Assembly: GCA_018971625.1 (NCBI GenBank)
Contig: JAGXAJ010000002.1
Coordinates: forward strand, 45,993 to 109,992
DNA length: 64,000 nt
Source: Pseudomonadota bacterium
GTDB lineage: Bacteria > Pseudomonadota > Alphaproteobacteria > Rhizobiales > Xanthobacteraceae
Direction of reading: 5' to 3'
The notes under the pieces are model-generated. The model worked only from the letters and a program-made list of their open reading frames with translations, searched no databases and had not been told where the DNA came from. A program made the translations under genes and the position numbers. Shown here piece after piece: positions 4,925 to 24,215 of the stretch (position 1 is the first letter of the stretch; each line of letters begins with the position of its first letter).

Positions 4925-4927
4925 ATA

Positions 4928-7083: not shown

Positions 7084-8208
7084 GTGCCCAAGATCCTGAT
7101 TATCACGAACGATTTTCCGCCTCGTGTCGGAGGCATTCAGTCGTTTCTTCATACAGTCGCGATGCAGCTTTCGAAAGATGTCGCCGTCTACGCGCCAGCG
7201 TGGCGCGACGCTACGTCTTTTGACAGGTCCTTGCCGTTTCCCGTTTTTCGCCACCCGACCTCGTTGATGCTGCCGGTGTGGACGGTGCGCCGACGCGCAC
7301 TCGCGATCATGGCTGGCGAAGGCTGTGACAGCATATTGTTCGGTGCCGCGGCTCCGCTCGGATTGCTGGCGCCGGCGCTGCGACGCGCCGGCGCACGGCG
7401 CATGGTCGCAATCACCCATGGTCATGAGGCCGGATGGGCCGCGGTCCCGCTGGCGCGCGGATTGCTGCGCCACATCGGCGATTCCGTCGATGCCGTCACT
7501 TACCTCGGCGATTATTTCCACCGCCGCCTTGCCGACACCCTGTCGCCGGCAGCGGCGGCCCGGATGAGACGTCTCGGCCCAGGCGTTGATACGGAGCGTT
7601 TCCGGCCAGGTTGCGGCGGCGCGATCGTTCGGGCGCGGCTGGGTCTGGGAACAAGGCCCGTTATTCTCTGCGTCTCGCGCCTGGTGCCACGCAAGGGGCA
7701 GGATATGTTGATCCGCGCCATGCCTATGGTGCTCAAGGCAGTGAGCGAAGCAGTTCTGGTCCTGGTCGGGGAGGGCCCTTACGCGGGCAAGCTCCGCCGT
7801 CTCGCGCGCAGGCTCGGCCTCGGCAGGCACGTTCTGTTCACTGGCGAGATATCGGGTGAGGAATTGCCTGCCTACTACGATGCGGCCGATATTTTCGCGA
7901 TGCCATGCAGAACCCGCCGCGCCGGGCTCGACGTCGAGGGGCTTGGCATTGTCTTTCTGGAAGCGGCCGCCAGCGGCCTGCCCGTCATCGCGGGCGATTC
8001 GGGCGGTGCCCCCGATGCCGTGCTCGAGGGCGAGACCGGGTTCGTCGTTTCTGGCCGCGATTTGCAAGGCCTCGCCGATCGGCTGAAACGGCTGTTGGTC
8101 GATCCGGCCCTGGCCAAAACGATGGGTACGAGAGGACGTGCGTGGGTAGAAGGCTCCTGGAGCCGGGACGTACTCGGCCGGTCTCTAAGAGAGCTGCTCG
8201 AACTCTAA
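7084..8208 (+). CDS. GT4 glycosyltransferase, PimB'-like (candidate second mannosyltransferase on an inositol lipid)
   Basis: 374 residues starting at GTG 7084. The N-terminus, KILIITNDFPPRVGGIQSFL, is close to the opening of actinobacterial PimB' proteins (VTNDFPPRxGGIQ). GT-B/GT4 features follow: a VDTERFRPG linker, CVSRLVPRKGQDMLIRAMP and the donor-binding EX7E motif in EGLGIVFLEAAASGLPVIA. In mycobacteria PimB' adds the second mannose to phosphatidylinositol monomannoside. The family is broad and also makes LPS and exopolysaccharide sugars, so the assignment rests on the N-terminal match plus neighbouring PimA-like and inositol-phosphate synthase genes. Its stop overlaps the stop of the convergent PimA-like gene by 3 bases. 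Confidence 0.75.
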   Translation: MPKILIITNDFPPRVGGIQSFLHTVAMQLSKDVAVYAPAWRDATSFDRSLPFPVFRHPTSLMLPVWTVRRRALAIMAGEGCDSILFGAAAPLGLLAPALRRAGARRMVAITHGHEAGWAAVPLARGLLRHIGDSVDAVTYLGDYFHRRLADTLSPAAAARMRRLGPGVDTERFRPGCGGAIVRARLGLGTRPVILCVSRLVPRKGQDMLIRAMPMVLKAVSEAVLVLVGEGPYAGKLRRLARRLGLGRHVLFTGEISGEELPAYYDAADIFAMPCRTRRAGLDVEGLGIVFLEAAASGLPVIAGDSGGAPDAVLEGETGFVVSGRDLQGLADRLKRLLVDPALAKTMGTRGRAWVEGSWSRDVLGRSLRELLEL

Positions 8209-9380
8209 GGGTGGACGCGGCCCGCACGGTGGATCCGGCGTGACCGCGATCGTCTCGCCTCCTCATAGACAGCGAGAAAGGCCGGTAACCGTTCCTTGCT
8301 GTCATAGCTGAGGGCTTCGTCCCGTCCCCATTCCCCCAAGCGAGCACGCAAGTCGGACTGCGTGATCAGCCTCTCAAGCTTGTTGCGCAAATCCGAGGCG
8401 TCGCCGGGCGCGGCCAACAGGCTTGACGCCTCTCCCGTGAGCACGGTCTTGTATCCTGCATTTGCCGCAGCGATGATCGGCTTGCCGCTTGCCATCGCCT
8501 CGGCCAGAACGATCCCGAACCCTTCGCCGTAGATCGCGGGGGCGCAAAACACGTCGCACGTGGCATAGAGGGAGGGGAGATCGAGGTCGTCGATCCGGCC
8601 CAGAAACACGACGTCGGGGATCCTTTCTCGCTCCACCAGGCCCTCCAGCCTGTGCCGCTCGGATCCATCTCCTGCGATCAGCAACTTTGCATTTGAAATA
8701 TCCTGTCTCAGCTCCGCAAAGGCTTTCAGTAGAATGGAGGCGCCTTTGCGTGGCTCCAACCGGCCGAGGAATAGAATGTTGATGCGTTCGTCTTTCAAAC
8801 CTTCAAGTGGCGCTGCGCCGCAACCAAAGCGGCGCAAGTTGACGCACGGTGGCAGGACCGTGCCGGCCGCCAGGTGCAGATCCCGCTGCACCCTCGATGC
8901 CAGAATGACATGGTCCAGTCGCGACGCCAGGCGTCGATTCAACATCCCATACAAGGCTCGCTGCGCCGCGCCGGATCCTGTTTCCGGTGGAACGGCATGA
9001 AATGTGCCCACGTTCGCTGCGGTCGATCTGTTGAGAACCTGCATCGAAAGAAAAGGGCTGAGTGGCGTGTGCAGATGGACGACATCGAAATCGGCCGAAC
9101 TCATGAGCTGATCGAGCCTTCTCGACTCTTCGCCAAAAGCCAGCGAAAATTCGAACGCAGTCTTGTTGATGGAGATCAGTCTCGCAGCTCCGACCTTGAC
9201 GATCGTCACCTCATCCCGGCGGGCTTCTTCGCGGCTTGCGTGCTTGCCCCGGGATACGTGCGGAGCAATGATTGTAACGTTGTGCCCTATCGCGGCGAGC
9301 GCGCTGGACAGGTCGAGAATATGAGCTTGAACGCCGCCAGGGCGGTCGATGTCATAAGGACATACCTGCGCAATTTTCAA
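8205..9380 (-). CDS. GT4 glycosyltransferase, PimA-like (candidate phosphatidylinositol mannosyltransferase)
   Basis: 391 residues. The start KIAQVCPYDIDRPGGVQAHI matches the PimA opening (VCPYSFDxPGGVQxHV), including the GGVQ loop at the acceptor site. FDVVHLHTPLSPFLSMQVL parallels the PimA FDVLHIHEPxxPSLSMLAL block. ILFLGRLEPRKGASILLKA and the EX7E motif GEGFGIVLAEAMASGKPII are intact. PimA transfers the first mannose from GDP-mannose to inositol of phosphatidylinositol on the inner face of the cytoplasmic membrane. The last ~15 residues are Arg-rich (SRSRRIHRAGRVHP), fitting peripheral membrane binding. It is convergent with the PimB'-like gene and divergent from a GT32-type gene. Confidence 0.75.
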   Translation of the reverse strand: MKIAQVCPYDIDRPGGVQAHILDLSSALAAIGHNVTIIAPHVSRGKHASREEARRDEVTIVKVGAARLISINKTAFEFSLAFGEESRRLDQLMSSADFDVVHLHTPLSPFLSMQVLNRSTAANVGTFHAVPPETGSGAAQRALYGMLNRRLASRLDHVILASRVQRDLHLAAGTVLPPCVNLRRFGCGAAPLEGLKDERINILFLGRLEPRKGASILLKAFAELRQDISNAKLLIAGDGSERHRLEGLVERERIPDVVFLGRIDDLDLPSLYATCDVFCAPAIYGEGFGIVLAEAMASGKPIIAAANAGYKTVLTGEASSLLAAPGDASDLRNKLERLITQSDLRARLGEWGRDEALSYDSKERLPAFLAVYEEARRSRSRRIHRAGRVHP

Positions 9381-9507
9381 TATTTGCCTTCGCTCTCGCC
9401 AGCCGGAAAACTCAGTTTGAAGGACCGTAACACAGGATCAAACCAGCGGCGATTGACCTTGATGGACCGGTATCTCAATATTTGGTGCCCCCGGGATTAC
9501 AGATTTC
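9381..9507. promoter_or_regulatory. Divergent intergenic region, PimA-like / GT32-type genes
   Basis: This 127-bp spacer lies between the starts of the leftward PimA-like gene and the rightward GT32-type/ABC-transporter group. Promoters for both directions are expected here by layout. No operator or sigma-factor boxes were recognised. Confidence 0.35.
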
Positions 9508-10278
9508 ATGTCGCCTCCCATACCAACCATTCTGCACCAGCTCTGGCGCACGGCTGACTTGCCGCCTGCCTTTGCCAAATGGCGCGCCGGGTGGATTGCC
9601 TGCCATCCGACGTGGTCCCATCGCCTTTATGACGACGAAGCCATGCGCCGGACCACGGCTGATCGGGCGCCGCAATGGCTTGCCACGTTCGACGCACTTC
9701 CTCGCGTGATCCAGCGCGCCGATTTCTTCCGATATCTGATCGTCTATCTCGACGGCGGAATGTACGCGGACATCGACATGGTTTGTTATCACCCGAACAA
9801 CAAGCTGCTGGCCGATGCAAGCTGCGTACTTGGTACGGAAAACCACATCAGCACCTATTTGCAGCAAAAGCTCAATTACCAGCGGCCCTGGCAGCTTGCC
9901 AATTTCATCTTCGCCGCGGCCCCGGAACATCCCTTGTTTGCGGCTCTGCTCGAGGCGATTGCCCGAAAAGCGACCAGGACGGTCGAGAGCGATCATCACG
10001 TCCAGGAGATCACGGGGCCGCGTCTGCTGACACGAATTGCCTATGACTTGCCTGCCGACGTGCGCGGGTCCATCCGGCTTCTTCCCCAGATCAACTGGAA
10101 TCCGCCCTCGATCTATCCACGAATTGGGCCGATTGCGCGACGGACGTATGCCCGGCATCTCTGCGTGGGAAGTTGGCGAACGCTCCGGTTCTGGTGGCAG
10201 CAGCCCGCGGAAGGCAGATTAGGCCATCATATTCGCCCACCCAATCCGTTCGCTACCGCTTCTCCGGATCTTCGATAG
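9508..10278 (+). CDS. GT32-type (Och1-like) glycosyltransferase, copy A
   Basis: 256 residues. It opens with IPTILHQLWRTADLPP, the IPxxIHQIW block of GT32 (Och1/capsular mannosyltransferase-like) enzymes. RADFFRYLIVYLDGGMYADID carries the R-x-D-xx-RY helix and the LDGG-x-YADID nucleotide-sugar/metal site (Asp88, Asp90). Members transfer mannose, galactose or related sugars in glycolipid and capsule synthesis; the sugar cannot be told from the sequence. It is a clear paralogue of the gene at 12206, with the first ~100 residues nearly collinear. The pair flanks an MsbA-like ABC transporter, all on the plus strand. It probably elongates the glycan head of the lipid built by the neighbouring genes. 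Confidence 0.8.
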   Translation: MSPPIPTILHQLWRTADLPPAFAKWRAGWIACHPTWSHRLYDDEAMRRTTADRAPQWLATFDALPRVIQRADFFRYLIVYLDGGMYADIDMVCYHPNNKLLADASCVLGTENHISTYLQQKLNYQRPWQLANFIFAAAPEHPLFAALLEAIARKATRTVESDHHVQEITGPRLLTRIAYDLPADVRGSIRLLPQINWNPPSIYPRIGPIARRTYARHLCVGSWRTLRFWWQQPAEGRLGHHIRPPNPFATASPDLR

Positions 10279-10393
10279 GGCAGCCAAAAGCGCGCTGTCC
10301 GAGGCTCAGGTTCTGCTTGCCCGCTGCTGCGGGTCGATCGTAAGTTGAGCCGACCTATCGGGCAGCTTTACAGAATTTCATTTGCGAGTCTGA

Positions 10394-12199: not shown

Positions 12200-12205
12200 C
12201 GCCCG

Positions 12206-12979
12206 ATGGACAGGATGAGTTCAGGCAATATTCCCAAGATTCTGCATCAGCTTTGGCATACAGCCGACTTGCCGCCACGTTTCGCCGAGTGGCGCGCCGG
12301 ATGGATTGCCAACCATCCGACGTGGTGCCATCGCCTTTATGACGGTGAGGCAATGCGCCGGATAACAGCCGATCGCGCGCCACAATGGCTTGCCACGTTC
12401 GACATTCTTCCGCGAATGATCCAGCGCGTCGATTTTTTCCGGTATCTTATCGTCTACCTTGATGGCGGCCTTTACGCCGATGTGGACATGATATCCTATT
12501 TGCCCTGTGATGCCCTGCTCCGTGACGCGAGCTGTGTCCTCAGCATCGAACATCGACTTTACCGGCAACTTCAAACTGAACTTGGCTACAGGCGGCCTTG
12601 GCAAATTGCGAACTTTGTCTTTGCCGCGGTGCCCGGCCATCCATTTTTGGCAGCGCTGCTTGAAGCCGTCGCGCGGCAGGCGAGCATGCCGGCACTGAGC
12701 GACGACGCCGTGGAGGAAATCACCGGGCCTCGCCTGCTGACCCGACTGGCCTATGCACTGCCGGCCGAACAGAGAGGCGAAATTCGTATCTTGCCGCAGG
12801 TTCATTTGAACCCGCCTTTCTTCTATCCGCGTTTGGGGCCGCTCGCACACATCATCTATGCTCGCCATATCTGTGCTGGGGAGTGGCGCAAGCAGTCACG
12901 ACCCTTGAACAGGCGGTTTTTGCCCAAAGGACCGTTTCCCAATCCATTTTCAACGGACTGCGCGACCCTCCTTGATTGA
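12206..12979 (+). CDS. GT32-type (Och1-like) glycosyltransferase, copy B
   Basis: 257 residues. The start can be the ATG at 12206 or at 12215; the latter gives MSSGNIPKILHQLWHTADLP. It has the same motif set as the copy at 9508: HQLWHTADLPPRFAEWRAGW, QRVDFFRYLIVYLDGG and LYADVD. The PWQIANFVFAA and EEITGPRLLTRLAYALPAE blocks are also shared with copy A. The two diverge at the C-terminus, so they probably act on successive positions or different acceptors after a duplication. It begins 6 bp after the ABC transporter stop and is surely in the same transcript. Next comes the convergent DUF3108 gene. Confidence 0.8.
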   Translation: MDRMSSGNIPKILHQLWHTADLPPRFAEWRAGWIANHPTWCHRLYDGEAMRRITADRAPQWLATFDILPRMIQRVDFFRYLIVYLDGGLYADVDMISYLPCDALLRDASCVLSIEHRLYRQLQTELGYRRPWQIANFVFAAVPGHPFLAALLEAVARQASMPALSDDAVEEITGPRLLTRLAYALPAEQRGEIRILPQVHLNPPFFYPRLGPLAHIIYARHICAGEWRKQSRPLNRRFLPKGPFPNPFSTDCATLLD

Positions 12980-13016
12980 CGCCGGGCCTTTTTGCTGCGC
13001 TGGAAACAGGCGGTTT

Positions 13017-13851
13017 TCACGGCGCGGGTGCCGACGCGGCTGCTCCGTTGATTTCAAGGCGCCTCGCCTCCATCATTCCCAGACCCAGCGGTGTGCGGAT
13101 CGAGATGCGAGACGGCACCAGGATGCCTGCGCCCGCGACGGGGACAAGCCAAACCTCCATGTCGCGCTGCTCGGCGAGATATTTGAACAAAAACCGGTTC
13201 GGGTCATGGCCCGCTATCGGCACGAAGTACATCGCGCAAACCACAGCAACGCCTCGGGTATCCGACCGGAGCCGTCACATCGGCAACCTGCTTGAACTCG
13301 AGCTTGAGGTCGTAGCGAACGCGACCGTCGAAGACCGGGACCGTTCTTTTGCACGCTTCCGGGCCGGGCTGACTCGTCTGGCCGGGCGCGCTGACCAGAG
13401 CAGCCGTCAATGGGTCAATGACCTTTGTGCGGTGATCCTTTGTGATCGGCAACAACGCTCCGTTGGGAGGTGGTTCCGGATCAATGGATACCTCAGTGGC
13501 ATTGCGGTCGGAAAAATTGACACGGACCGTTTCTTCCCGGGACCTGACGTTGGTCGTCAGCGTATACGTCGATGGCAGCATCTCGCCATGGGAACGAGCG
13601 CCGCTCGTCGCGATTTCGCCGCGGCCGTCCAGCACGACCCGAAACGCGCCTGATGTGGCGCCCTTCGCCGTCGCCCGGAAGCGGCGTTCGTCGATGTCGA
13701 GCCGTCCGGATATCTCGCCGATCGGAAGGCCTGCAAGTGTGACCTGGTAAAATGCGTCAAGCCTGACCTCGGCTGCTCTCGAAGTGCCGTCGGCTCCTTG
13801 CATCAAGGCAGTAACGAGCAAATAGCTTCGAAGCCGGCGACCCGGGCGCAT
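13017..13851 (-). pseudogene. DUF3108 periplasmic protein, frameshifted near its C-terminus
   Basis: From the ATG at 13849-13851 the frame has a signal-like N-terminus (Arg-rich, then SYLLVTALM) and a mature start AEVRLDAFYQVTLAGLPIGE. That block and VRYDLKLEFKQVADV are characteristic of DUF3108 proteins of Rhizobiales. Around 13245-13255 the frame runs into unrelated PRRCCGLRDVL and stops at 13204. The expected continuation, VVCAMYFVPIAGHDPNRFL, then MEVWLVPVAGAGILVPSRIS, is in another frame ending at 13017. One extra base near AGGCG fits. Unless this is a sequencing error, the conserved C-terminal third is lost. DUF3108 function is unknown. Its place beside the LptF/G-like genes suggests an envelope-lipid role. 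Confidence 0.7.
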
Positions 13852-14054
13852 GACGTGGACCAAGTTAGCCTCTCGCGAACCCGCCCATTTTTTGCTGCCG
13901 CATCATGGGATGTTGCGAGATCGTTGCGAAAAATGCAATATTTTCCGGCACAAGACCGGGTGGCCGGCCGCGTCAGGGGTGACCGGAGCAGCTTGCCGAT
14001 GAATGACGTTGCCGCAATCGCGTTGGGTGACGTGGATACTGGACAGATTGCCAC
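13852..14054. promoter_or_regulatory. Divergent intergenic region, DUF3108 / LptF-like genes
   Basis: This ~200-bp spacer lies between the leftward DUF3108 gene and the rightward lptF-like/lptG-like genes. It contains AT-rich patches (GAAAAATGCAATATTTTCC near 13926-13944), an imperfect palindrome that could be part of a promoter or operator. Assignment is by position only. Confidence 0.35.
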
Positions 14055-15263: not shown

Positions 15264-15285
15264 ATTCGTGTGAGCGCCATATCCG

Positions 15286-15504: not shown

Positions 15505-15511
15505 AACGGTC

Positions 15512-16723
15512 GTGACGACGTTGCCGTTAAGAGGTCGGCGTTTGTCGACGATGGCCCGATTGATACGTCGCGCTATCCCGGTCCCGTTCGGCTGGCACAC
15601 CCGCTACATGGTGATGAATTATTGCCGGCACACATTCCTCGTGGGTTGCGCCGTTCTGACCATCGCCCTGTCGATCGACTCCTCCTTGTTCCTGTCGAAA
15701 GTGCTGACCACCATCTCGACCTGGAACACGTCCTGGAGCGCGCTTTACGTCGGGTGGTATCTCGTACTCCGTGGAACCGATTTCCTGGCCGAGTTGCTGC
15801 CGCTTGTCTGCTTCCTCGGCGCATTCTGGACGGAGATCGCGCACACGCTGTCAAGTGAGCGACTTGTCGTCTGGCTCAGCGGACGGACTCCATGGCAGTG
15901 CGTGCTGCCGGTCTTATTGTTCGGCCTCATTGTCGGCGGCGTGCAATTGGCTCTGAACCGTTATCTGCGCCCCGATGCGGTCATGAGCCTGGCGAAAAAT
16001 CATCTTGGATTCTATGGCGAGCATTTCGATCCGCGGCCGCTGCCGTATCAGCAATGGTTCGCCGCGGGGCACGATATCGTTCAGGCTCGCGTCGAACCAG
16101 GCGAACCGGCCACCCTGCGGGATATCAACATCTATCGGATGGACGATGCGCTTTCATTGAAGGCCTTCATCCGCGCCAAATCTGCAATACCGGTCGGCCG
16201 CGACAAGTGGAAACTTGTCGACGGTTATCGGTGGTCGGCCACGGAAACTCAAGAGCGGCCCAGCTTTAGTCGGCGCGATCCAAAGGCGCCTGCGCTGTCC
16301 GAACAAATTCCGTTCGCGAACGAAATCACCGAGCTCAATCTTTCGCCCGTTTGGCTCAACAACAACAGGATCGGGGCCCGCTACCTGACCACAGACGTAT
16401 TCGCCTCGCTCGAACACGAGGATTTCTCGCCAGCCTATGAATTCCGCACCTGGCAGCGCGCCAGATGGTCACTCGCATTGTTCTGTGCAGCAATGCCGCT
16501 GCTGGCGGCCAGCCTTTCGCTGGTGTTTTTGGCCAAGCGGATCACTCCTGCGGCGTTGATCATCATCGCGATCGCGGGATACGCGGCCAATACCCTCATG
16601 AAGATTTCGGTCTTGCTCGGCGAGCACGGTCAAGTTAGCCCAGTGATGGCCGCATGGTTCGTGCCGGTGCTAGTACTCTTGGCCTGTTCCGGCGTGATCG
16701 GTTTCATTAGTCGCGATGATTGA
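15512..16723 (+). CDS. LptF/LptG-family permease (YjgP/YjgQ), second of a pair
   Basis: 403 residues from the GTG at 15512. Hydrophobic helices lie near residues 35-60, 75-110 and 115-140, and three more at the C-terminus after about residue 310. The periplasmic part in between includes LPYQQWFAAGHDIVQARVEP and LRDINIYRMD. FLAELLPLVCFLGAFWTEIAHTLSSERLVVWLSGRTPW is the counterpart of the LptG coupling region. The C-terminal SLVFLAKRITPAALIIIAIAGYAANTLMKIS is typical of LptG ends (FG...Y...). Together with the gene at 14055 it would form the heterodimeric membrane part of an LptB2FG-like extractor that pulls a lipid out of the inner membrane. The ATPase gene is convergent at 16779. Confidence 0.8.
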   Translation: MTTLPLRGRRLSTMARLIRRAIPVPFGWHTRYMVMNYCRHTFLVGCAVLTIALSIDSSLFLSKVLTTISTWNTSWSALYVGWYLVLRGTDFLAELLPLVCFLGAFWTEIAHTLSSERLVVWLSGRTPWQCVLPVLLFGLIVGGVQLALNRYLRPDAVMSLAKNHLGFYGEHFDPRPLPYQQWFAAGHDIVQARVEPGEPATLRDINIYRMDDALSLKAFIRAKSAIPVGRDKWKLVDGYRWSATETQERPSFSRRDPKAPALSEQIPFANEITELNLSPVWLNNNRIGARYLTTDVFASLEHEDFSPAYEFRTWQRARWSLALFCAAMPLLAASLSLVFLAKRITPAALIIIAIAGYAANTLMKISVLLGEHGQVSPVMAAWFVPVLVLLACSGVIGFISRDD

Positions 16724-16778
16724 CGGCGAGGGCGGCATCGCTTTCGCGGCGAAGGCCCGCGCTCATGAAGCCTTCGAG

Positions 16779-17525
16779 TTACATGGCGCGAGCTGGGGAA
16801 TGACCGGCAAGCTCTCCCGCACTACCTTCGTACACAACCCTTCCCGAGTCGATGACATAGCCGCGTTCGACGCTGGCGAGCGTTTCCTTGACGCTGTGGT
16901 CGGTAATCAGGACGCCGAGGCCGAGTCCGGTAAGATATCTGATAGTCGCTCTGATCTCTTCGATTGCGATCGGGTCGATGCCGGCGAAGGGTTCGTCGAA
17001 AAGAATGAAGGCTGGCCGCGCGGCTAGTGTGCGTGCAATCTCGCAGCGGCGGCGTTCTCCGCCGGAAATCCCGGTCGCCGGGGCACGACGGACATGCTCA
17101 AGCCTGAAGCGCTCGAGAAGGTGGCCGGTGAGACGTTCGCGGCGGGCGCGGTCAACCTCGTAAGCCTCGATGACAATCATAATGTTCTGCTCCACGGTAA
17201 GACCACGGAACAAGGAGGGCTCCTGAGGCAGGTAACTCAAGCCGCGTCTGGCCCGCTGGTGGATCGGCATGAAGGTGATGTCCTCGCCATCCAGCAGGAT
17301 GCTGCCCGCGTCTGGCACCTGCACCCCTGCAATCATCTGAAATAGCGTGGTCTTGCCCGCTCCGTTTGGTCCAAACAGTGCGACAGCTTCGCCGCGATCG
17401 ATATGAATACTGATGTCGGAGGTGACGTCGCGCAGCCCGATCCTTTTTGAGAGCTGACTTGCCATAAGCATGCAAGAAACTCCTGTGCTGGAGGCGGAGG
17501 CCGACTTGTCTGTTGCCGGCAGCAT
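16779..17525 (-). CDS. LptB-like ABC ATPase in an operon with inositol-phosphate synthase
   Basis: 248 residues. Walker A is LFGPNGAGKTT, the Q-loop block is LSYLPQEPSLFRGLTVEQNI, the signature is ISGGERRRCEIARTLA and Walker B is FILFDEPFAGIDPIAI, followed by VLITDHSVKETL. The PLPQE-xSxFRxLTVEQN and DEPFAGIDPIA blocks are diagnostic of LptB and not of general importers. Compared with housekeeping LptB it lacks the YLGxxF C-terminal extension, ending GHSPARAM. Start: ATG at 17525, with later ATGs at 17471 and 17465 also possible. The gene begins 15 bp after the ino1 stop on the same strand, so the two are almost certainly co-transcribed. This ties inositol production directly to an Lpt-like export machine. 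Confidence 0.85.
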   Translation of the reverse strand: MLPATDKSASASSTGVSCMLMASQLSKRIGLRDVTSDISIHIDRGEAVALFGPNGAGKTTLFQMIAGVQVPDAGSILLDGEDITFMPIHQRARRGLSYLPQEPSLFRGLTVEQNIMIVIEAYEVDRARRERLTGHLLERFRLEHVRRAPATGISGGERRRCEIARTLAARPAFILFDEPFAGIDPIAIEEIRATIRYLTGLGLGVLITDHSVKETLASVERGYVIDSGRVVYEGSAGELAGHSPARAM

Positions 17526-17540
17526 GCACGGCTTGCTGGC

Positions 17541-18641
17541 CTAGGCGGCGCTGCCGTCGCCGGGCGATTCGCCGTCAACGAAACTGAGCAGCATGCGCCG
17601 AGCCTCATCGTCGGTGAACTGACGAGGCGGCGCTTTCATATAGTAGCCGGAAGCTTCAAGGATAGCGCCGCCCAATCCACGATCAAGGGCAATCTTCGCA
17701 CAGCGAACGGCGTCGACAACCACCCCCGCAGAATTCGGTGAGTCCCAAACCTCGAGCTTAAGCTCCAAATTAAGAGGGACGCCCCCGAAGCCGCTTCCCT
17801 CAATCCTGATATGGGCGATCTTGCGGTCTTGCAGCCAAGGCACATAGTCGCTGGGACCGACATGGATTTGTCCCTCGTCAAATGTGTCGTGGAGCTGGCT
17901 GACGACGGCCTGCGTTTTCGAGATTTTCTTCGACGTCAGCCGGTCGCGCTCCAGCATGTTCAGGAAGTCGGAGTTGCCGCCGAAATTCAGCTGGTAGGTC
18001 CGGCACACCGTGACGCCGCGTTCCCTAAACAGGTTGGCAAGCGTTCGATGGGTGATGGTGGCCCCGACCTGGCTTTTGACGTCGTCACCAATAATCGGAA
18101 GGCCGCGTTCTTCAAAGCGCTTGCGCCATTTCGGGTTGGAAGCCAGGAAAACGGGGATGCAGTTGACATAGGCGCATCCCGCTTCGATCGCAGCATTGGC
18201 GTAGTATTCGCTGGCCTTCTGAGATCCCACGGGAAGGTAGGAAACCACGATCTCAGATCCGGTGCGTTTGAGAACATCAATCACATTTGCCGGTCGAGAT
18301 TTCGACAGTTCGATCTTGTCCCGGAGAAATTCGCCAACACCGTCGAGCGTCTCGCCACGGCTGACTTCGACACCCAGGGGCGGCACTTTAGCGAACTTCA
18401 AAGTATTATTGGGTCCCGCGAAAATGGCTTCGGAAACGTCGCGGCCGACCTTGGCGGCATCGACATCAAAGGCCGCGGAGACGACGATGTCGCCGACATC
18501 GTAGCCTCCCAACGTGGGGTGCATCAGCCCGTGCATTGGCTGATTGGATGAGCCTTCCCGGTAATGATGCAGTCCCTGTATCAGGGAGGACGCGCAATTG
18601 CCGATCCCAACAATTGCCGTTCGAATTTCGGAAAACCCCAT
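17541..18641 (-). CDS. ino1: Inositol-3-phosphate synthase (MIPS)
   Basis: 366 residues, the length of actinobacterial/archaeal-type enzymes. The NAD-binding loop is [20 protein letters not shown]. Other family blocks are [14 protein letters not shown], the [14 protein letters not shown] segment, [15 protein letters not shown], and [14 protein letters not shown] with the active-site region. The enzyme turns glucose-6-phosphate into 1L-myo-inositol-1-phosphate in the cytosol, using bound NAD. Most alphaproteobacteria degrade inositol and do not make it, so the gene is notable. An AAGGA ribosome-binding site lies about 9 nt before the ATG. The LptB-like gene follows at 15 bp. Inositol-1-phosphate is the direct substrate of PIP synthases, and a CDP-alcohol phosphatidyltransferase gene lies 3 kb away. 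Confidence 0.93.
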
Positions 18642-19067
18642 TGAAAAAAATCCTTAAGTCCGGCGCCTCAGACGCCGAACTCCCCTAAACGTAAATTAGC
18701 TTAATGGCTAGTCCGGCGCCAGTTCTCGACGGGTCATATTTTGCTCGTCGGGTGCGTCCTCCTAAACGAACCTTCCGTTGTTTCTGGTCAGAAACAGTCT
18801 GAAGGCAGGAATACCCTCGCTTCACTTGTTTCGAAGGTTTGAAAGTGGCTCGGCTATTCAAGTAATATTGATCAAATCCTCCCGTTACGATGACCAAGGA
18901 TCTGACATCGAGTGGAAATCGTCGGTACCTTCCAACAGTCTGGCGAGTGTTTATGGCCTGACCCGCGGGCAATGGTCGCTGCTTGTCATGCGCTTCAGGC
19001 GGATTCAGCGGCGCGTCACGGCGCGACCACGCGCCTGACTGCCGCTCGCGGGCCGCAGTAGTCTTGT
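18642..19067. promoter_or_regulatory. 426-bp non-coding gap upstream of ino1
   Basis: No gene is supported here. The part next to ino1 is AT-rich (AAACGTAAATTAGCTTAATGG near 18688-18708) and probably holds the ino1-lptB promoter, read leftward. A short inverted repeat, GGCGCC-TCAGAC-GCC at about 18662-18676, lies in the untranslated leader. Open frames in the right half have no recognisable content. Confidence 0.35.
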
Positions 19068-19601
19068 CTAACTTGCGAAATGCGCGACCGGCAACATCAA
19101 CAGGCCCGAAAGCGCGCCGGCGATCACGTCATCACTGACGACATTAAAGCCGGCGTGCCTGCCGAGGGCGACATCGACTGGCCAAGGCTTGAAGATGTCG
19201 AACAGCCGAAAGAGGGCCAGCGCAGCCAGCTGAATCCAAAGCAACGAGCTATTGATAATCAGCAGCGTGACGAGGGCTCCCGTGACCTCGTCGATCACGA
19301 CGGTTTGCGGATCATCTTGTCCACAATCGGCAGCAACGAGATGAGCACAGAGGACGGAAAGCGCGGCAATCAGCCCGGCAACAGCCAGCTGCAGCTGCAT
19401 GGGCTCCAAGCGCAACAACCAGTAGAGCGGCAGCGTCGTTGCGGTTGCAATTGTTCCTGCGCCGAACCGGATGTATCCGACGCCAAACCAGGTTGCTGCC
19501 AGATATGATCCGGCCAGCACAACACTTTCTCGCCGCGGCCGGCACTCGTCAGGTCGAGCCTTCGCGTCGTCGCTCACATTCGTCGCCCCCAGCTTCCACA
19601 C
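19068..19601 (-). CDS. PgpA-family phosphatase, candidate phosphatidylinositol-phosphate phosphatase
   Basis: 177 residues from GTG 19601, or about 169 from GTG 19577; about four membrane segments. All PgpA blocks are present: GVGYIRFGAGTIATAT (FGxGTxGT-like), DPQTVVIDEVTGALVT with Asp104/Glu105, FRLFDIFKPWPVDVA, and GFNVVSDDVIAGALSG with Asp157/Asp158. Classical PgpA dephosphorylates phosphatidylglycerol-phosphate. A PgpA-like enzyme is known in Bacteroides to dephosphorylate phosphatidylinositol-phosphate beside MIPS and PIP synthase genes. The same trio is present here, so I prefer PIP phosphatase, but PGP phosphatase is not excluded. The minus-strand orientation matches ino1, which is 426 bp downstream. 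Confidence 0.8.
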   Translation of the reverse strand: MWKLGATNVSDDAKARPDECRPRRESVVLAGSYLAATWFGVGYIRFGAGTIATATTLPLYWLLRLEPMQLQLAVAGLIAALSVLCAHLVAADCGQDDPQTVVIDEVTGALVTLLIINSSLLWIQLAALALFRLFDIFKPWPVDVALGRHAGFNVVSDDVIAGALSGLLMLPVAHFAS

Positions 19602-19739
19602 TCAACGCGGGTACCCAACCCGTCAATTTCTAGCTCATATGGCCGGTGCGCCACAAGGCGTGGACGCCGCGGGCGGAGCTTGCGGTATATCGCTTTGGCG
19701 TTGATCTATGTAGCCTGTCGCTCCGATGCTGAGGCTCTG

Positions 19740-20603
19740 ATGCACGACTTGGTTGTCCGTTCTCTGAAACTTGCCTGCAGGCTTCCGCGCCCGTTGCGCG
19801 ATGCGTTATCGGCTATCGCCGGTACCGTGGCCTGGGCAGTTGCCGCGCAGCCGCGCCGGAACGTGACCTCGAACGTCAAGCAGGTCCTGAGGCATTTCTC
19901 CGGAGAACCGCGCGCACTGCACGTGCAGCACATCGCGCGGCGGGTTTTCCGCCGCTGTATCAGCAACTACCTTGAGTTGTTTGCTCTTCCAAGGCTCGCG
20001 AAGGAGGAAATACTCGGGCGGATTGACGTCGTAGGCCAGGAACATTTCGAGCAGGCCATCGCGCAAGGAGGCGGCGTCATCATTGCCTCAGCTCACCTCG
20101 GTCCGTTCGAATACCTGCCGTCCTGGATGCCGGCACGCGGCTTCGAAATGACCATCCCCGTTGAAAGGATGGAGGACAGGCAGATGCTCGGCATGATGCT
20201 TCAGGCTCGCCTGTCAAACGGCGTGACATTTGTACCTCTTACCGGCTTTGCCGCGATCCGAACCATGGTTCGGACGCTCCGGAAGAGGCAGGTGGTCTTG
20301 ATCACTGCTGATCGCGCAGTCGAAGGCCAAAGCACCGTTGTGAGCTTCTTCGGCGCTCCAGCGAGGCTGCCGATCGGCCCCGTCGATCTCGCTATCATGA
20401 CGGGGGCGCCCCTGATCGGCGGATTTGGCTGGTGCCGCGGGCGGCGGGATATCATTGAATTCGCGCCAATCTCGCTGGCATTACCCGTTCAGCAGCGAGC
20501 GGATCGCGCGGCATTGCAGGCGGCCCTTGTCGATCAGCTGGAGAGGGCGATCGGCACACATGTCGACGAATGGGTCGTATTCGAGCCCATCTGGCAGTAT
20601 TGA
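19740..20603 (+). CDS. LpxL/HtrB/PatA-family lipid acyltransferase
   Basis: 287 residues from the ATG at 19740; an upstream in-frame TTG at 19680 seems less likely. The catalytic HX4E motif is SAHLGPFEYL (His119, Glu124), followed by ITADRAVEGQSTVVSFFGAPARLPIGPVDLA, the usual D-R...FFG-x-xAxxPxGPxxLA block. The family includes LpxL/LpxM (lipid A secondary acylation) and mycobacterial PatA, which acylates the mannose of PIM. Given its neighbours I favour acylation of the inositol glycolipid, with a second lipid A acyltransferase as the alternative. Divergent from the PgpA-like gene, with a 138-bp spacer. Confidence 0.82.
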   Translation: MHDLVVRSLKLACRLPRPLRDALSAIAGTVAWAVAAQPRRNVTSNVKQVLRHFSGEPRALHVQHIARRVFRRCISNYLELFALPRLAKEEILGRIDVVGQEHFEQAIAQGGGVIIASAHLGPFEYLPSWMPARGFEMTIPVERMEDRQMLGMMLQARLSNGVTFVPLTGFAAIRTMVRTLRKRQVVLITADRAVEGQSTVVSFFGAPARLPIGPVDLAIMTGAPLIGGFGWCRGRRDIIEFAPISLALPVQQRADRAALQAALVDQLERAIGTHVDEWVVFEPIWQY

Positions 20604-20630
20604 AATACCTTGCGGTTTTCAAAGCCGTGA

Positions 20631-21044
20631 TCAAGACTCTCTTCGCAGCAGATTGAAGCCCCCAAACAGCGCCAGAAAGGTTGTGGCTGCGGCAGCAATC
20701 GCTGCGAAGGGAAGAACGACGTGCCAGCCGCTGTGGTGCTGGAAGGTTCTATAGGCCGCACATGCAAGCAGGAGCGGCAGTGCCACGGCAATGACCGGAA
20801 TTCGGTGCGGAAGCTGTAGCAGGCGAAAGCGTGCAAACTTCCGCCAGGGCGGTTCGACCAGAACCCCAAATGAAAGCGCACAGACATTGAGAGTGATCAA
20901 GAAAACGGTCAGGCAGCCTCGGTAAATGATCTGCCCGGCGATCGCGGTCCAATACGCAAAGCGGTCCGCCGGCGGCGCAGGCACGGAAAAATCGGAATAT
21001 GCCTGCACATACAATCGTGCATGCCACGGCTTCTTCACTTCCAA
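20631..21044 (-). CDS. Small membrane protein, unknown
   Basis: Up to 137 residues from a TTG at 21044; a GTG at 21038 is equally possible, so the start is uncertain. Three membrane segments are visible: about YWTAIAGQIIYRGCLTVFLI (31-52), IPVIAVALPLLLACAAY (81-98) and VVLPFAAIAAAATTFLALF (110-128). No catalytic motif or known family was recognised. It is convergent with the acyltransferase gene and sits between acyltransferase and phosphatidyltransferase genes. An accessory role in the lipid pathway is possible but unproven. Confidence 0.5.
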   Translation of the reverse strand: MEVKKPWHARLYVQAYSDFSVPAPPADRFAYWTAIAGQIIYRGCLTVFLITLNVCALSFGVLVEPPWRKFARFRLLQLPHRIPVIAVALPLLLACAAYRTFQHHSGWHVVLPFAAIAAAATTFLALFGGFNLLRRES

Positions 21045-21246
21045 CGCGTCTACTCCATTTCAGCCATGTGGTTGCAAACAGTCGTCCATCGGCAGTGAAG
21101 CCGTTCCGTCCATAATTTGCAATTGTCGATTGGTGCCGATAAGAATTGGCATTGATCCAGGCGAACGGCCTGGGGGTGGCGCCAAAGGCACTAGATGTGA
21201 ATGCCAGTGCGCTGCCGGCAAATGAGTTTTCAGCATCCGCGCGCTC

Positions 21247-21873
21247 ATGTTGGCCAGTCTTTTACGCGAGCCCGTCATATGGATCGGGCGTACTTTTCTC
21301 AGATTGCTTGTCGCGTCCGGCGTGACGCCGAACCAGATCACGTTGACCGGGCTTGCTCTCGTGCTGCTCAGCTGCGCTCTGTATGTTCTCACCAACGATA
21401 TGTTCGTGCTCGGCGTCGGCCTGTCGCTTTCCTATGCCTTCGACGGGCTCGATGGCACGATTGCTCGCCGGACCGGTAAAGCCACGCTGTTCGGAGGGTA
21501 TTTGGATGCAGTCGTTGATCGTTACCAGGAGATAGTGAGCTATTTCGTTGTAGGGCTCGTGAAGGGTTGGTGGATCGGTGTGTTCCTTTTGACGGTTGGG
21601 TCGTTGTTGGTGAGCTACAACAAGGCCGCTGTCGCGCTTCAAGTTCAGATCGAGAACAAGGCGTGGCCGGATCTGATGGAGCGGCCGCGACGCGCCTGGC
21701 TGTTCTGCGCCGCACTCATTCTGGATAACGCCGTCCCAGTGCCAGATCGCCTTGGAGGCAGCTTTGCCCATCTCGCGATATGGTACATCGCAATCCTCGT
21801 TCACTTCACTGCGGTGCAGCGGTTCGTTCGCGCAAAGCGAATGCTCATGGATATGGCGGCCCCTTCACGCTGA
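21247..21873 (+). CDS. CDP-alcohol phosphatidyltransferase, candidate phosphatidylinositol-phosphate synthase
   Basis: 208 residues with about five or six membrane helices. The complete CDP-OH-P signature D-x2-D-G-x2-A-R-x8-G-x3-D-x3-D is seen in FDGLDGTIARRTGKATLFGG, continuing YLDAVVDRYQE (Asp66, Asp69, Asp87, Asp91). The N-terminal GVTPNQITLTGLALVL is also typical. The family attaches an alcohol (glycerol-3-P, serine, inositol, inositol-1-P) to CDP-diacylglycerol. With MIPS and a PgpA-like phosphatase beside it, inositol-1-phosphate is the most likely acceptor, giving phosphatidylinositol-phosphate. A PgsA-like role in phosphatidylglycerol synthesis is the main alternative, but that gene is usually a lone housekeeping gene elsewhere. 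Confidence 0.83.
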   Translation: MLASLLREPVIWIGRTFLRLLVASGVTPNQITLTGLALVLLSCALYVLTNDMFVLGVGLSLSYAFDGLDGTIARRTGKATLFGGYLDAVVDRYQEIVSYFVVGLVKGWWIGVFLLTVGSLLVSYNKAAVALQVQIENKAWPDLMERPRRAWLFCAALILDNAVPVPDRLGGSFAHLAIWYIAILVHFTAVQRFVRAKRMLMDMAAPSR

Positions 21874-21930
21874 CGGTGCGCCCGAGCTGACATAGAGAAG
21901 CTAGGTGAAGTTTGAGGCAACATAACCAGA

Positions 21931-22560
21931 GTGGTCTCGATTGCACGCAGGGTCTGGTTTCCAAAATCCCCGGGGGCGAGGATCGCGTCCGCATTCGCTT
22001 TGCTGTGTATTGCGCCACTGCTGTTTTATGCGACACGCTTTCTGATCGACAAGGCGTGGAGCGTCGAGGTTACCTTTCAGGGAATGTCCGACGATGTTTC
22101 CCGATTTGCTGTTTATAATGGGAATCGATCAAAGCAGTTTGTTCGCGTCACTCGCTTTGTCCTTTCAACCGCCAGGTTCGGCAAGCTCGATTGGGATGAT
22201 TTCGATTCGAAGATCGCGGATCCTGGCCGCTTTGTGCCGGCCGCCGGCCGCATCGACTTCTCGGTGGTTGCTCCGGCCGACACTGGCGAGTACCTGTGCT
22301 CGTCGCTCAGGGCGATTGGTTTCTTCGCGCAATACGGCGCCCTCAAAAATGGAAGATTGACGGCGGGCCCAGCGCGCGCGTCCACAGCGAAGAAAATAAT
22401 TGAGGATCTTAGCTGCTCGTATGACTTTTCAAACAAAAAGCAGCCCATGGAAAGCGTGAGTCAAAAGGACGACGGTTCGGACGTAACCCAGACAATACAC
22501 GTGCCATGTGGTCAGGTGGGCTGGGTATCCGAATGCGTATCCCAGATTGCACCGTTTTGA
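21931..22560 (+). CDS. Single-pass membrane-anchored protein, unknown
   Basis: 209 residues from GTG 21931. One N-terminal transmembrane segment (about residues 16-36, RIASAFALLCIAPLLFYATR) is followed by a soluble, presumably periplasmic domain with four cysteines (EYLCSS, DLSCSY, HVPCGQ, SECVSQ) that could make two disulfides. No motif recognised. It starts 57 bp after the phosphatidyltransferase stop on the same strand, so it may be in that transcript. It is convergent with the GT-C-like gene. Confidence 0.6.
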   Translation: MVSIARRVWFPKSPGARIASAFALLCIAPLLFYATRFLIDKAWSVEVTFQGMSDDVSRFAVYNGNRSKQFVRVTRFVLSTARFGKLDWDDFDSKIADPGRFVPAAGRIDFSVVAPADTGEYLCSSLRAIGFFAQYGALKNGRLTAGPARASTAKKIIEDLSCSYDFSNKKQPMESVSQKDDGSDVTQTIHVPCGQVGWVSECVSQIAPF

Positions 22561-22589
22561 CGGGTGAGTTGTTGGCGCCCGCGACCGCG

Positions 22590-24215
22590 TCAGTGAACCG
22601 CCGCGGCATCGAGCGGTTTCTTTTCGACCTTGTAGAGCCGAAAGTCACCTGAACTTTTGACGAACGCCAATTGACTCTGCGAGAGGGCCAGAAGATCGTC
22701 TCCAAAGTCTGGACCATCGACCACGACGTAGTCGAACTTGAGAAGCTGGCTAGCCAGGTCGGCACCATACTTCCTGTACTCCTTCTTTGTATCGGCGAGG
22801 AAAGTAAACGAAGTCTCCGGAACCGGCTGCAGCCATTGATCGTGGAATCTGAGAGGCTGCTGGCCGGGCTTCGTGAAGATGGATTGCACCAGAGCACGCT
22901 TTGCCAGAACCGCAAAGGCTCCGACATGGTACAGTCCGATCGAATGAAGTTGTGACGGCTTCATGCCGCTGTGTAGGACAAATAACGCGCTGCCCTCCGG
23001 AGTCTCATGTATGACATTGAGGAAATCCTCTCGCCCCAGCTCTGACCTGTGCCACGACTGAACGTTAACGCACGAGATCGCAAACGTCAGCAGCAAGATG
23101 CCGACCATGATCTGTTTTACGTGGATTTCGCCTCGCTCAGTGGGCACGCAGGAGGCGATAAAGACGAGGATCGCCAGGAACAAGACTCTCCAGGCCACGT
23201 AGAAGGTACCGGCTATCTGATCTGGAAGCAGAAAGAACAGCAAGATGGAGATCGCGATCGGAACAGCGAAATCTCCACGCACCTCAATCCATCGCAATCT
23301 TACGATTGCAATGCCAACGACCAGGGCAAACGCGACGACCAAGACGAAGTTAATGACGGGATTGCCCAGGCTGATAAGATTTTCGATCTGCAATACCCGA
23401 ACGAACGGGAATTGAAACTGCTGGACCGTGAACTCTGGATTCGTGGAACCCTGGTTAGCGTGGATCAGCATGAACGGCACGGGGAGCGCCTGTAGGCTAT
23501 CGCGAACCAGTCGCGCGACAAACAGCATCGGCGTCGGCGATTTCCGCTCGATCATTCGCTGTATTTCGTAGCCAAAGACGAACAGGCCGTAGAATGCCCA
23601 GGCATAGAGATGCACAAAGTATAGTGCTGTAGAACAGGCCGTTGCGAAAAAAAGCCTCCTAAGCCAATGCATTTTGACCGCCGACACCCACCAGGCCGCG
23701 GCGAGCAGCGCGCATCCACACCCAAGCTCAAAGCCGAGAAATCCCCTCGCAAAGCCAGCATTGAACAGCAAGGGCACCGCGAGCAGGGGCGCTATTGTTA
23801 GTCTTGATGCGACGATGCGATTAAGCGCAAAGCAACCCGCAAGGGTCGTGAGGCTGGCCGTCGCAATAAATAGCTTCCCTGTCCACGCCAACGGCAAGAA
23901 CCGGCCGACGGCCATGGCCCAGATGTCCCAACCAAGGTTGGGCAGCGTGGTCCATTGGACGCTGTAGAGCCGCTGTAGTACCGGGTCATCTCGATGGAGC
24001 AAGATGAAAGCTCGCGCCAAGTGATTGGGGTAGTCTTGCAGGCCGGGGTATGGGAAAAAGAGAAGTGGCGCGAGTGCGATTGTTAGCGCCCCGGCCGTCC
24101 AGGCGATTACCGATGCGTTGAAACGGTTCGCTGCCGCTGGCCGCGGCAAGTGTTGTTTGACGATTTCAACCGACATTGTGGTTAGTTGGAATTGCCGATC
24201 GAACGAGGAGATCAC
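22590..24215 (-). CDS. GT-C-like polytopic membrane protein, putative lipid-linked-sugar glycosyltransferase
   Basis: Up to 541 residues (ATG at 24215; ATG at 24176, MSVEIVKQHL, is an equally good start). About ten membrane helices are followed by a ~110-residue soluble C-terminal domain. In the first periplasmic loop, LLFFPYPGLQDYPNHLARAF contains the Asp (QDYPNH) expected for a GT-C catalytic acid/base. GT-C enzymes use polyprenyl-phosphate sugars on the periplasmic face; PIM elongation beyond the early steps uses such enzymes. The assignment is structural inference, as no family signature is certain. It is the last gene before the tRNA and reads away from it. Confidence 0.6.
   Translation of the reverse strand: MISSFDRQFQLTTMSVEIVKQHLPRPAAANRFNASVIAWTAGALTIALAPLLFFPYPGLQDYPNHLARAFILLHRDDPVLQRLYSVQWTTLPNLGWDIWAMAVGRFLPLAWTGKLFIATASLTTLAGCFALNRIVASRLTIAPLLAVPLLFNAGFARGFLGFELGCGCALLAAAWWVSAVKMHWLRRLFFATACSTALYFVHLYAWAFYGLFVFGYEIQRMIERKSPTPMLFVARLVRDSLQALPVPFMLIHANQGSTNPEFTVQQFQFPFVRVLQIENLISLGNPVINFVLVVAFALVVGIAIVRLRWIEVRGDFAVPIAISILLFFLLPDQIAGTFYVAWRVLFLAILVFIASCVPTERGEIHVKQIMVGILLLTFAISCVNVQSWHRSELGREDFLNVIHETPEGSALFVLHSGMKPSQLHSIGLYHVGAFAVLAKRALVQSIFTKPGQQPLRFHDQWLQPVPETSFTFLADTKKEYRKYGADLASQLLKFDYVVVDGPDFGDDLLALSQSQLAFVKSSGDFRLYKVEKKPLDAAAVH

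What the first reader, a model, noticed from the sequence alone, without database searches (positions are those of the whole stretch)
7084..24215. Candidate complete inositol-phosphoglycolipid (PIM-like) pathway in an alphaproteobacterium
Seen: MIPS (17541-18641), CDP-alcohol phosphatidyltransferase (21247-21873), PgpA-like phosphatase (19068-19601), PimA-like (8205-9380) and PimB'-like (7084-8208) GT4 enzymes, an LpxL/PatA-type acyltransferase (19740-20603), two GT32-type transferases and a GT-C-like protein, all in one block. Known: MIPS, PIP synthase and a PgpA-like PIP phosphatase are clustered in Bacteroides; PimA, PimB' and PatA build phosphatidylinositol mannosides in actinobacteria. 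Inference: this bacterium makes a mannosylated or otherwise glycosylated, extra-acylated phosphatidylinositol. I know of no such full set described in Rhizobiales. The set combines Bacteroides-like and actinobacteria-like steps.
Basis: partly seen in the sequence, partly recalled or inferred. Interest (0 to 1): 0.95.

Follow-up and report, generated by a model that had tools for sequence, protein, structure and literature searches.

The report
Inositol-glycolipid factory with its own exporter
A Bradyrhizobium-like bacterium carries, side by side, four genes whose closest solved relatives are enzymes with which mycobacteria and corynebacteria make sugar-decorated phosphatidylinositol lipids, a likely synthase for the inositol phospholipid itself, and a second set of pump subunits of the kind that exports lipopolysaccharide, so it likely makes an inositol glycolipid and would send it to its outer membrane; related gene sets sit in other Alphaproteobacteria.

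Summary
The genes are real and at the stated places. MIPS, the PimA-like and PimB'-like enzymes and the PatA-like acyltransferase have actinobacterial inositol-lipid enzymes as closest solved structures. The PIP synthase is divergent (closest structure archaeal AF2299) but keeps all six inositol-phosphate pocket residues of Mtb PgsA1; none of the genome's four other family members has the set. Of 297 genomes of the order, 18 have a close PIP synthase; all 18 have MIPS and extra LptF/LptG-family genes, which lie near the synthase in 15. Inositol-locus LptF and LptG form their own clades; MIPS is directly followed by lptB in the window and six other loci. Best reading: a glycosylated, probably acylated phosphatidylinositol is made, flipped and exported by a dedicated second LptB2FG. 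No lipid has been measured; sugar and export are inferred, and some synthase loci, mostly Mesorhizobium, lack the Lpt genes. Caulobacter's proposed LptF2/G2 for phosphosphingolipids is the nearest precedent. New variant of a known kind.

The parts
7084..8208 (+). PimB'-like GT4 glycosyltransferase
   Evidence: PDB 3oka 317.8 bits, E 8e-94, next protein 82.2 bits
8205..9380 (-). PimA-like GT4 glycosyltransferase
   Evidence: PDB 4n9w 150.4 bits, E 6e-43, next protein 90.2 bits
9508..10278 (+). DXD-type sugar transferase a (GT32-like)
   Evidence: PF04488 46.2 bits
10394..12199 (+). MsbA-like lipid flippase (ABC exporter)
   Evidence: best NCBIfam TIGR02203 MsbA 411.6 bits (cut-off 602)
12206..12979 (+). 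DXD-type sugar transferase b (GT32-like)
   Evidence: PF04488 41.1 bits
14055..15263 (+). LptF-like permease, inositol-locus clade
   Evidence: PF03739 80.1 bits; LptF clade 100/100
15512..16723 (+). LptG-like permease, inositol-locus clade
   Evidence: PF03739 101.2 bits; LptG clade 100/98; two residues uniform in 31 of 31 inositol-locus rows
16779..17525 (-). second LptB ATPase
   Evidence: TIGR04406 288.5 bits, over cut-off 240; the genome's other LptB is on contig C37
17541..18641 (-). myo-inositol-phosphate synthase (MIPS/Ino1), 15 bases upstream of lptB
   Evidence: TIGR03450 516.8 bits; 1gr0 468.8 bits; gap
19068..19601 (-). PgpA-like phosphatase, predicted PIP phosphatase
   Evidence: PF04608 110.9 bits; absent from the 59 other same-genus genomes searched
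19740..20603 (+). PatA-like acyltransferase
   Evidence: NF005919 PIM acyltransferase 137.1 bits (cut-off 209); 5oce 68.9 bits
21247..21873 (+). phosphatidylinositol-phosphate synthase (CDP-alcohol phosphotransferase), divergent
   Evidence: NF040950 110.8, NF045883 66.5 bits; pocket residues
21931..22560 (+). protein of unknown function with a hydrophobic N-terminus, conserved in the Bradyrhizobium PRO17 locus
   Evidence: no Pfam; 50% identity in L057
22590..24215 (-). GT-C fold glycosyltransferase, predicted to act in the periplasm
13204..13863 (-). DUF3108-like exported protein, frame broken near its C-terminus; membership in the system unsure
   Evidence: relatives beside the synthase in 3 of 80 loci, one of them a DUF3108 match; fold of a relative

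Best explanation
The block is predicted to be an inositol-glycolipid assembly line with its own outer-membrane export pump: MIPS would make inositol phosphate, the synthase would join it to CDP-diacylglycerol, the PgpA-like enzyme would remove the phosphate, and the PimA-like, PimB'-like, DXD-type and PatA-like enzymes would likely add sugars and a further acyl chain. An MsbA-like flippase would turn the lipid to the periplasmic side, where the GT-C enzyme may add a sugar from a polyprenyl-phosphate donor. A second LptB2FG, distinct from the housekeeping one, would then extract it from the inner membrane and feed it to the outer membrane. Shown here: gene content, family membership, the intact inositol-phosphate pocket, the second LptB/F/G set, its clades, and the co-occurrence across genomes. 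Inferred: every reaction in the cell, the sugar identity (mannose is only a guess from PimA/PimB'), the acylation, and the export. Which periplasmic bridge and outer-membrane port it uses is open; no LptA, LptC or LptD was found among the block's frames that were scanned, so it may share the housekeeping bridge.
For: PDB matches of MIPS, PimA, PimB' and PatA. Pocket residues R94, S132, K135, R152, R155, R195 of PgsA1 (passages of PMC6506517) fall on R92, S123, K126, R146, R149, R192 in three MAFFT runs; present in 26 of 26 cluster synthases, full set in 0 of 4 own paralogues. PgpA in 1 of 60 genus genomes, the window's own. Second LptF/G and LptB in addition to a housekeeping lptF-lptG-lptD-surA locus. 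Order-wide: 18 of 18 genomes with a close synthase have MIPS (49 of 279 others) and three or more LptF/G genes (41 of 279 others); MIPS on the synthase's contig in 16 of 18, an LptF/G gene within 13.5 kb in 15 of 18. Inositol-locus LptG (28 rows) and LptF (33 rows) form clades with 100/98 and 100/100 support. MIPS directly followed by lptB in the window and 6 other loci.
Against: No lipid has been measured, and nothing shows that this LptFG moves the inositol lipid and not a modified LPS. In 3 of the 18 genomes (G208, G068, G135) the third LptF/G copy is elsewhere; G036 and G186 have one copy near the synthase, of higher score (150.9 and 155 bits) than the window's. Of 57 public loci of 20 kb or more, 29 show no LptF/G at the cut-offs used, and 16 of these, mostly Mesorhizobium, no MIPS and no PimA-like gene either, 13 of them with PgpA. 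41 genomes without a close synthase also have three or more LptF/G genes, so extra copies have other uses. One inositol-locus LptF row (L112_13948) falls outside the clade, housekeeping LptF rows fall in two groups, and many branches are long. The closest solved structures of the synthase are archaeal AF2299 (49.5 bits) and an inositol cytidylyltransferase fusion (34), ahead of PgsA1 (29.2). The PimA-like enzyme lacks two acceptor-site residues that I recall for PimA (R68, K123). The window genome is a draft of 157 contigs.
Confidence: 0.6

Rival explanations
1. The inositol lipid is the anchor or starter of a surface polysaccharide (capsule- or O-antigen-like); the second LptB2FG exports the finished lipid-linked polymer, and the block is a surface-polysaccharide island.
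For: The block lies in a region of about 40 kb without a match in one same-genus genome, G302; an FkbH-domain gene lies next to it; a polysaccharide-export (PF02563) gene lies about 18 kb upstream, in the flank shared with G302; two ABC ATPases with Wzt_C domains in the R. palustris locus; a Stealth-family gene in a Stappia locus with relatives in 34 of 80 loci; in Bacteroides inositol is linked to the capsule (PMC9246714, passages).
Against: No polymerase or polymer exporter was found among the window-block frames scanned; a PatA-like acyltransferase and a GT-C enzyme fit a discrete glycolipid better.
Confidence: 0.22
2. Two neighbouring but separate functions: ordinary phosphatidylinositol (or PIM-like) inner-membrane lipid synthesis, and a paralogous Lpt set that exports a variant LPS.
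For: Proven Lpt substrates are LPS (recalled); some genomes keep the pieces apart (G208, G068, G135) and 29 of 57 long synthase loci show no LptF/G.
Against: MIPS-lptB adjacency in four genera, clade-specific LptF and LptG and linkage in 15 of 18 genomes argue for one system.
Confidence: 0.12
3. MIPS and the CDP-alcohol enzyme make a soluble inositol compound (di-inositol phosphate-like solute or a mycothiol-like thiol), not a lipid.
For: TIGR03450 is named for mycothiol Ino1, MshA is the best NCBIfam model of GT4a and second of GT4b (far below its cut-off), and fused inositol cytidylyltransferase/DIPP synthases match the synthase (4mnd).
Against: Best solved relatives of the GT4 enzymes are PimA and PimB', not MshA; PIP-synthase pocket; lipid enzymes and exporters all around.
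Confidence: 0.04
4. Artefact: the contig is chimeric or foreign to the genome.
For: Only 2 of 242 same-genus genomes, the window's own included, have the synthase; draft assembly.
Against: The same contig carries same-genus DNA at roughly 70-93% identity on both sides, and a Bradyrhizobium MAG has PgpA, PatA, synthase, the unknown gene and GT-C in the same order, 80% synthase identity.
Confidence: 0.02

Closest known systems
Phosphatidylinositol mannoside (PIM) pathway of Mycobacterium/Corynebacterium (Ino1, PgsA1, PimA, PimB', PatA, PimE)
   Same: Ino1, PimA, PimB' and PatA are the closest solved relatives of four genes; the synthase has PgsA1's pocket residues; a GT-C enzyme is present.
Bacteroides thetaiotaomicron inositol-lipid cluster BT_1522-1526 (PMC9246714, passages read)
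   Same: Clustered MIPS, PIP synthase and PgpA-like PIP phosphatase.
   Different: No Pim-like transferases or acyltransferase in the passages seen, and the term Lpt does not occur in that text.
Caulobacter crescentus phosphosphingolipid locus CC_1168-CC_1152 with LptC2, LptF2, LptG2 (PMC11324152, passages read)
   Same: A second Lpt permease set and a potential flippase beside synthesis genes of a non-LPS anionic lipid, proposed for selective transport to the outer membrane.
   Different: Ceramide-based; the word inositol does not occur in that text; whether its LptF2/G2 belong to the inositol-locus clades was not tested.
Housekeeping LptB2FG of the same genome (contigs C22, C37)
   Same: Same families, same pairing.
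   Different: Separate clades, PF03739 scores 260.7/196.4 against 101/79.3 bits, residue differences in LptG.

Membership tests
PIP synthase (prokaryotic phosphatidylinositol-phosphate synthase) | CDP-alcohol motif DxxDGxxARx8GxxxDxxxD | tested here: met
   D66, D69, G70, A73, R74, G83, D87, D91
PIP synthase (prokaryotic phosphatidylinositol-phosphate synthase) | inositol-phosphate pocket R94, S132, K135, R152, R155, R195 of PgsA1 (PMC6506517, passages) | tested here: met
   R92, S123, K126, R146, R149, R192 in three MAFFT runs with the 6h53 chain. The pairwise phmmer alignment agrees for the four arginines but sets S123 and K126 off register. R137 is A128 in the window
PIP synthase (prokaryotic phosphatidylinositol-phosphate synthase) | score over the NCBIfam equivalog cut-off | tested here: not met
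   66.5 of 170 bits (NF045883), 110.8 of 180 (NF040950); a divergent relative, not an equivalog by these models
PIP synthase (prokaryotic phosphatidylinositol-phosphate synthase) | uses inositol phosphate as acceptor | not testable with these tools
   needs enzyme assay
MIPS / Ino1 | full-length match to inositol-3-phosphate synthase | tested here: met
   TIGR03450 over residues 6-354 of 366, 516.8 bits (below its 638 cut-off); 1gr0 468.8 bits
PimB' | full-length match to PimB' well above other GT4 | tested here: met
   317.8 bits over residues 3-373, next protein 82.2 bits
PimB' | transfers mannose to PIM1 | not testable with these tools
   needs assay
PimA | best match among solved GT4; catalytic H118 and EX7E, donor R196, K202 (numbers recalled) | tested here: met
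   alignment
PimA | acceptor-site R68 and K123 (recalled) | tested here: not met
   S and E in the alignment; filed as PimA-like, not PimA
PatA | catalytic H126, acid E200 (E or D in the HtrB/MsbB/PatA group, PMC4792965), E149, R164 | tested here: met
   H, D, E and R in the alignment; H284, a docked inositol contact, is V (roles)
PatA | score over NCBIfam cut-off NF005919 | tested here: not met
   137.1 of 209 bits; filed as PatA-like
LptB2FG exporter | LptF + LptG + LptB | tested here: met
   PF03739 over cut-off for both; TIGR04406 over cut-off
LptB2FG exporter | equivalog scores for LptF/LptG (LPS exporters) | tested here: not met
   63.6 of 230 and 107.3 of 240 bits; paralogous clade
LptB2FG exporter | LptA, LptC, LptD partners in the block | tested here: inconclusive
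   none among the frames scanned; LptD is in the housekeeping locus
GT-C glycosyltransferase | GT-C fold with an acidic residue after the first membrane helix | tested here: met
Caulobacter-type LptF2/G2 lipid exporter | same clade as CC_1155/CC_1156 | not tested
   Caulobacter sequences were not in hand

The most novel reading that the evidence does not exclude
Probability: 0.5. Interest if true: 0.92.

Novelty: new variant of a known kind. Interest (0 to 1): 0.82.

Why it matters
Inositol lipids are described as comparatively rare in bacteria and were thought limited largely to Actinobacteria and Spirochaetes before the Bacteroidetes work (PMC9246714, passages). A PIM-like pathway in an alphaproteobacterium with its own Lpt set would mean that the Lpt bridge is not only an LPS machine but a way to put a chosen anionic glycolipid on the cell surface, next to the proposed sphingolipid case in Caulobacter. 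Because records of named strains carry synthase and LptFG together (Stappia and Shimia species, R. palustris JSC-3b), the prediction can be tested by ordinary lipidomics and gene removal. A role in plant or marine symbioses is speculation.

Tried and rejected

Weak points of the counts. One search scored at most 6 candidates per genome, so copy numbers may be low. Genome lists were typed; the 18 positives belong to 7 families and are not independent. 'Close synthase' means 125 bits or more; the next match has 44.1, and 210 of 297 genomes have some weaker CDP-alcohol match. Only the best 80 of 123 loci were kept by the tool. Rows dropped from trees: 8 ORFs by length, 2 long ORFs (L166_1787, L173_2638) and 12 near-copies. 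The f20 genomes were picked because they had MIPS, a weak synthase hit and four LptF/G copies, so their LptF/G were expected to exist, not to fall in the clade. The control genome G034 gives one informative row (L173_2297): its other two rows look like its housekeeping pair. PimA residue numbers are recalled; two source papers were not held.
Full report
Setting. The window is positions 45993-109992 of contig C9 of a 4.32 Mb draft genome (157 contigs, 95.5% complete). Same-genus genomes match the contig at roughly 70-93% DNA identity to the right of about 24.67 kb, and one of them, G302, at 73-83% to the left of the window. GC of the block's genes is 0.55-0.61 (0.65 in GT4a) against 0.614 on the right. 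The block is therefore a variable region in its genus: the synthase is in 2 of 242 same-genus genomes, the window's own included.

What was missed. In the same block lie an MsbA-like exporter (TIGR02203 best, 411.6 bits, below its 602 cut-off), a LptF-like and a LptG-like permease, and an LptB that passes its curated cut-off (288.5 of 240 bits). They are not the housekeeping set: the genome has another LptF/LptG pair (260.7 and 196.4 bits against 101 and 79.3), followed by LptD and SurA, and another LptB on contig C37.

Is the phosphatidyltransferase a PIP synthase? In Mtb PgsA1 a pocket of R94, R152, R155, R195 and K135, with S132 at the bound sulfate, is the proposed inositol-phosphate site (passages of PMC6506517). 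Three MAFFT runs put R92, R146, R149, R192, K126 and S123 of the window protein exactly there; the pairwise phmmer alignment agrees for the four arginines and sets the serine and lysine off register. All six are present in 26 of 26 cluster synthases; the full set is in 0 of 4 other CDP-alcohol enzymes of the same genome. The NCBIfam cut-offs are not reached, so it is a divergent synthase. The PgpA-like gene is the only one in the genome, and none of the 59 other same-genus genomes searched has one. In Bacteroides a PgpA-like gene is needed for PI and read as PIP phosphatase (PMC9246714, passages); the same role is the natural reading here, untested.

Pim-like enzymes. PimB' conservation is strong and full length. 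The PimA-like enzyme keeps the histidine, the EX7E glutamates and the donor-site arginine and lysine, but the positions of R68 and K123 of PimA are S and E (residue numbers recalled). PatA's H126, E149 and R164 are kept, E200 is D, and H284 is V (roles from PMC4792965, passages). So a glycosylated and acylated phosphatidylinositol is well supported by sequence, mannose less so. Two DXD-type transferases suggest further sugars.

Co-occurrence. In the same 297 genomes of the order, 18 have a close synthase (125 bits or more; the next has 44.1). MIPS is in 18 of these 18 and in 49 of 279 others; three or more LptF/LptG genes in 18 of 18 and 41 of 279 others. MIPS is on the synthase's contig within 20.3 kb in 16 of 18; an LptF/G-family gene lies within 13.5 kb in 15 of 18, two in 13; in G208, G068 and G135 the third copy is elsewhere, and in G036 and G186 the one near copy scores higher than the window's. 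These are seven families, not 18 independent cases. Among the best 80 of 123 public loci, at the cut-offs: MIPS 31, PgpA 37, PimA-like 47, LptF or LptG 34 (both 25), PatA-like 1, PimB'-like 1. Of the 57 loci of 20 kb or more, 28 have LptF/G and 25 LptF/G with PimA-like; 16 have none of LptF/G, MIPS and PimA-like, mostly Mesorhizobium, 13 of them with PgpA. So the synthase with PgpA also lives without the Lpt genes, or with ones too far off or too divergent to be seen. A Stappia PimA-like protein has PimA as best structure, 144.9 bits with the next at 66.8. PimB', PatA and GT-C are additions of the Bradyrhizobium form.

A dedicated Lpt. In the careful tree (98 rows) the inositol-locus LptG rows, window included, form one clade (28 rows, support 100/98) apart from 16 housekeeping LptG, and the LptF rows one clade (33 rows, 100/100) apart from 17 housekeeping LptF, which themselves fall in two groups. 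L112_13948 lies outside. Four of the clade rows come from family f20, picked because these genomes have MIPS, a weak synthase hit and four LptF/G copies. Two f20 loci (L165, L166) read LptG, LptF, PgpA, LptB, MIPS, GT4 and a divergent synthase; L169 ends before LptG; in L167 only LptB, MIPS, GT4 and the synthase were seen. Their LptB is 51.7-54.1% and their MIPS 61.6-63.8% identical to the window's; the L166 synthase scores 120.7 bits to NF040950. As a control, G034, with neither MIPS nor close synthase, has one extra LptF-type row, which falls outside the clade; next to it lie an aminotransferase I/II and an NTP transferase, as in the Caulobacter sphingolipid locus (inference from two domains). 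Long branches limit this tree. MIPS is followed directly by lptB in the window (15 bases) and in six loci: R. palustris JSC-3b, a Phyllobacteriaceae MAG and four f20 genomes. Second LptB copies occur in G000, the four f20 genomes and G037, not in the other 24 of 30 genomes searched, so Stappia-type loci probably share the housekeeping LptB.

Mechanism. I therefore propose synthesis of glycosyl-phosphatidylinositol on the cytoplasmic side, flipping by the MsbA-like protein, a possible periplasmic sugar by the GT-C enzyme, and delivery to the outer membrane by a dedicated LptB2FG. Shown: genes, residues, clades, linkage. Inferred: all reactions, the sugar, the acyl chain, the transport and its direction.

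Known ground. The idea of a second Lpt set for a non-LPS lipid is in print for Caulobacter phosphosphingolipids (LptC2, LptF2, LptG2; PMC11324152, passages), where transport was not investigated. The lists of ten searches of open-licence papers show nothing on an inositol lipid with Lpt genes. So: a new variant of a known kind, with a bold reading that cultured strains can test at once.

Noticed in passing
window 13204-13863 (-): DUF3108-like exported protein whose frame breaks near the C-terminus while similar sequence seems to go on in another frame; a sequencing error or a decayed gene.
   Followed up: partly
window 2406-6956 (-): Inside a chance 885-aa ORF lies a frame that looks like an MBOAT acyltransferase (3545-4924; by eye, no family scan of that frame), with a probable partner, and then an FkbH-domain protein (5157-6956, TIGR01686 287.3 bits); possible further modification genes.
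   Followed up: no
L123 (Stappia) and relatives: A related locus type with a second CDP-alcohol enzyme, an NTP transferase, an FGGY-type kinase and a Stealth-family gene beside PIP synthase and LptFG; could make a CDP-activated polyol for the same lipid.
   Followed up: partly
L165, L166, L167, L169 (family f20 genomes): MIPS-lptB loci with a divergent PIP synthase of only about 40-52 bits to the window's; the system is wider than a search with one synthase shows.
   Followed up: partly
L058 (Rhodopseudomonas palustris JSC-3b): PIP synthase and MIPS-lptB next to two Wzt_C ABC ATPases, LptF/G-like genes and a DXD-type transferase.
   Followed up: no
L065, L066, L077, L082, L085, L106, L110: Related PIP synthases also in records named Gammaproteobacteria, Betaproteobacteria, Desulfobacterales, Desulfotignum and Magnetococcales.
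   Followed up: no
L174 (G034), about 7-16 kb: Extra LptFG-type genes beside an aminotransferase I/II and an NTP transferase, a candidate sphingolipid-type export locus.
   Followed up: partly
L090-L101, L104, L107, L136 (mostly Mesorhizobium): PIP synthase with PgpA-like gene but without LptF/G, MIPS or PimA-like gene within about 10 kb; a simpler inositol-lipid locus or one with distant partners.
   Followed up: no
window 24731-26617 (+): Patatin/neuropathy-target-esterase-like protein with a cyclic-nucleotide domain at the edge of the variable region; shared by same-genus genomes.
   Followed up: no
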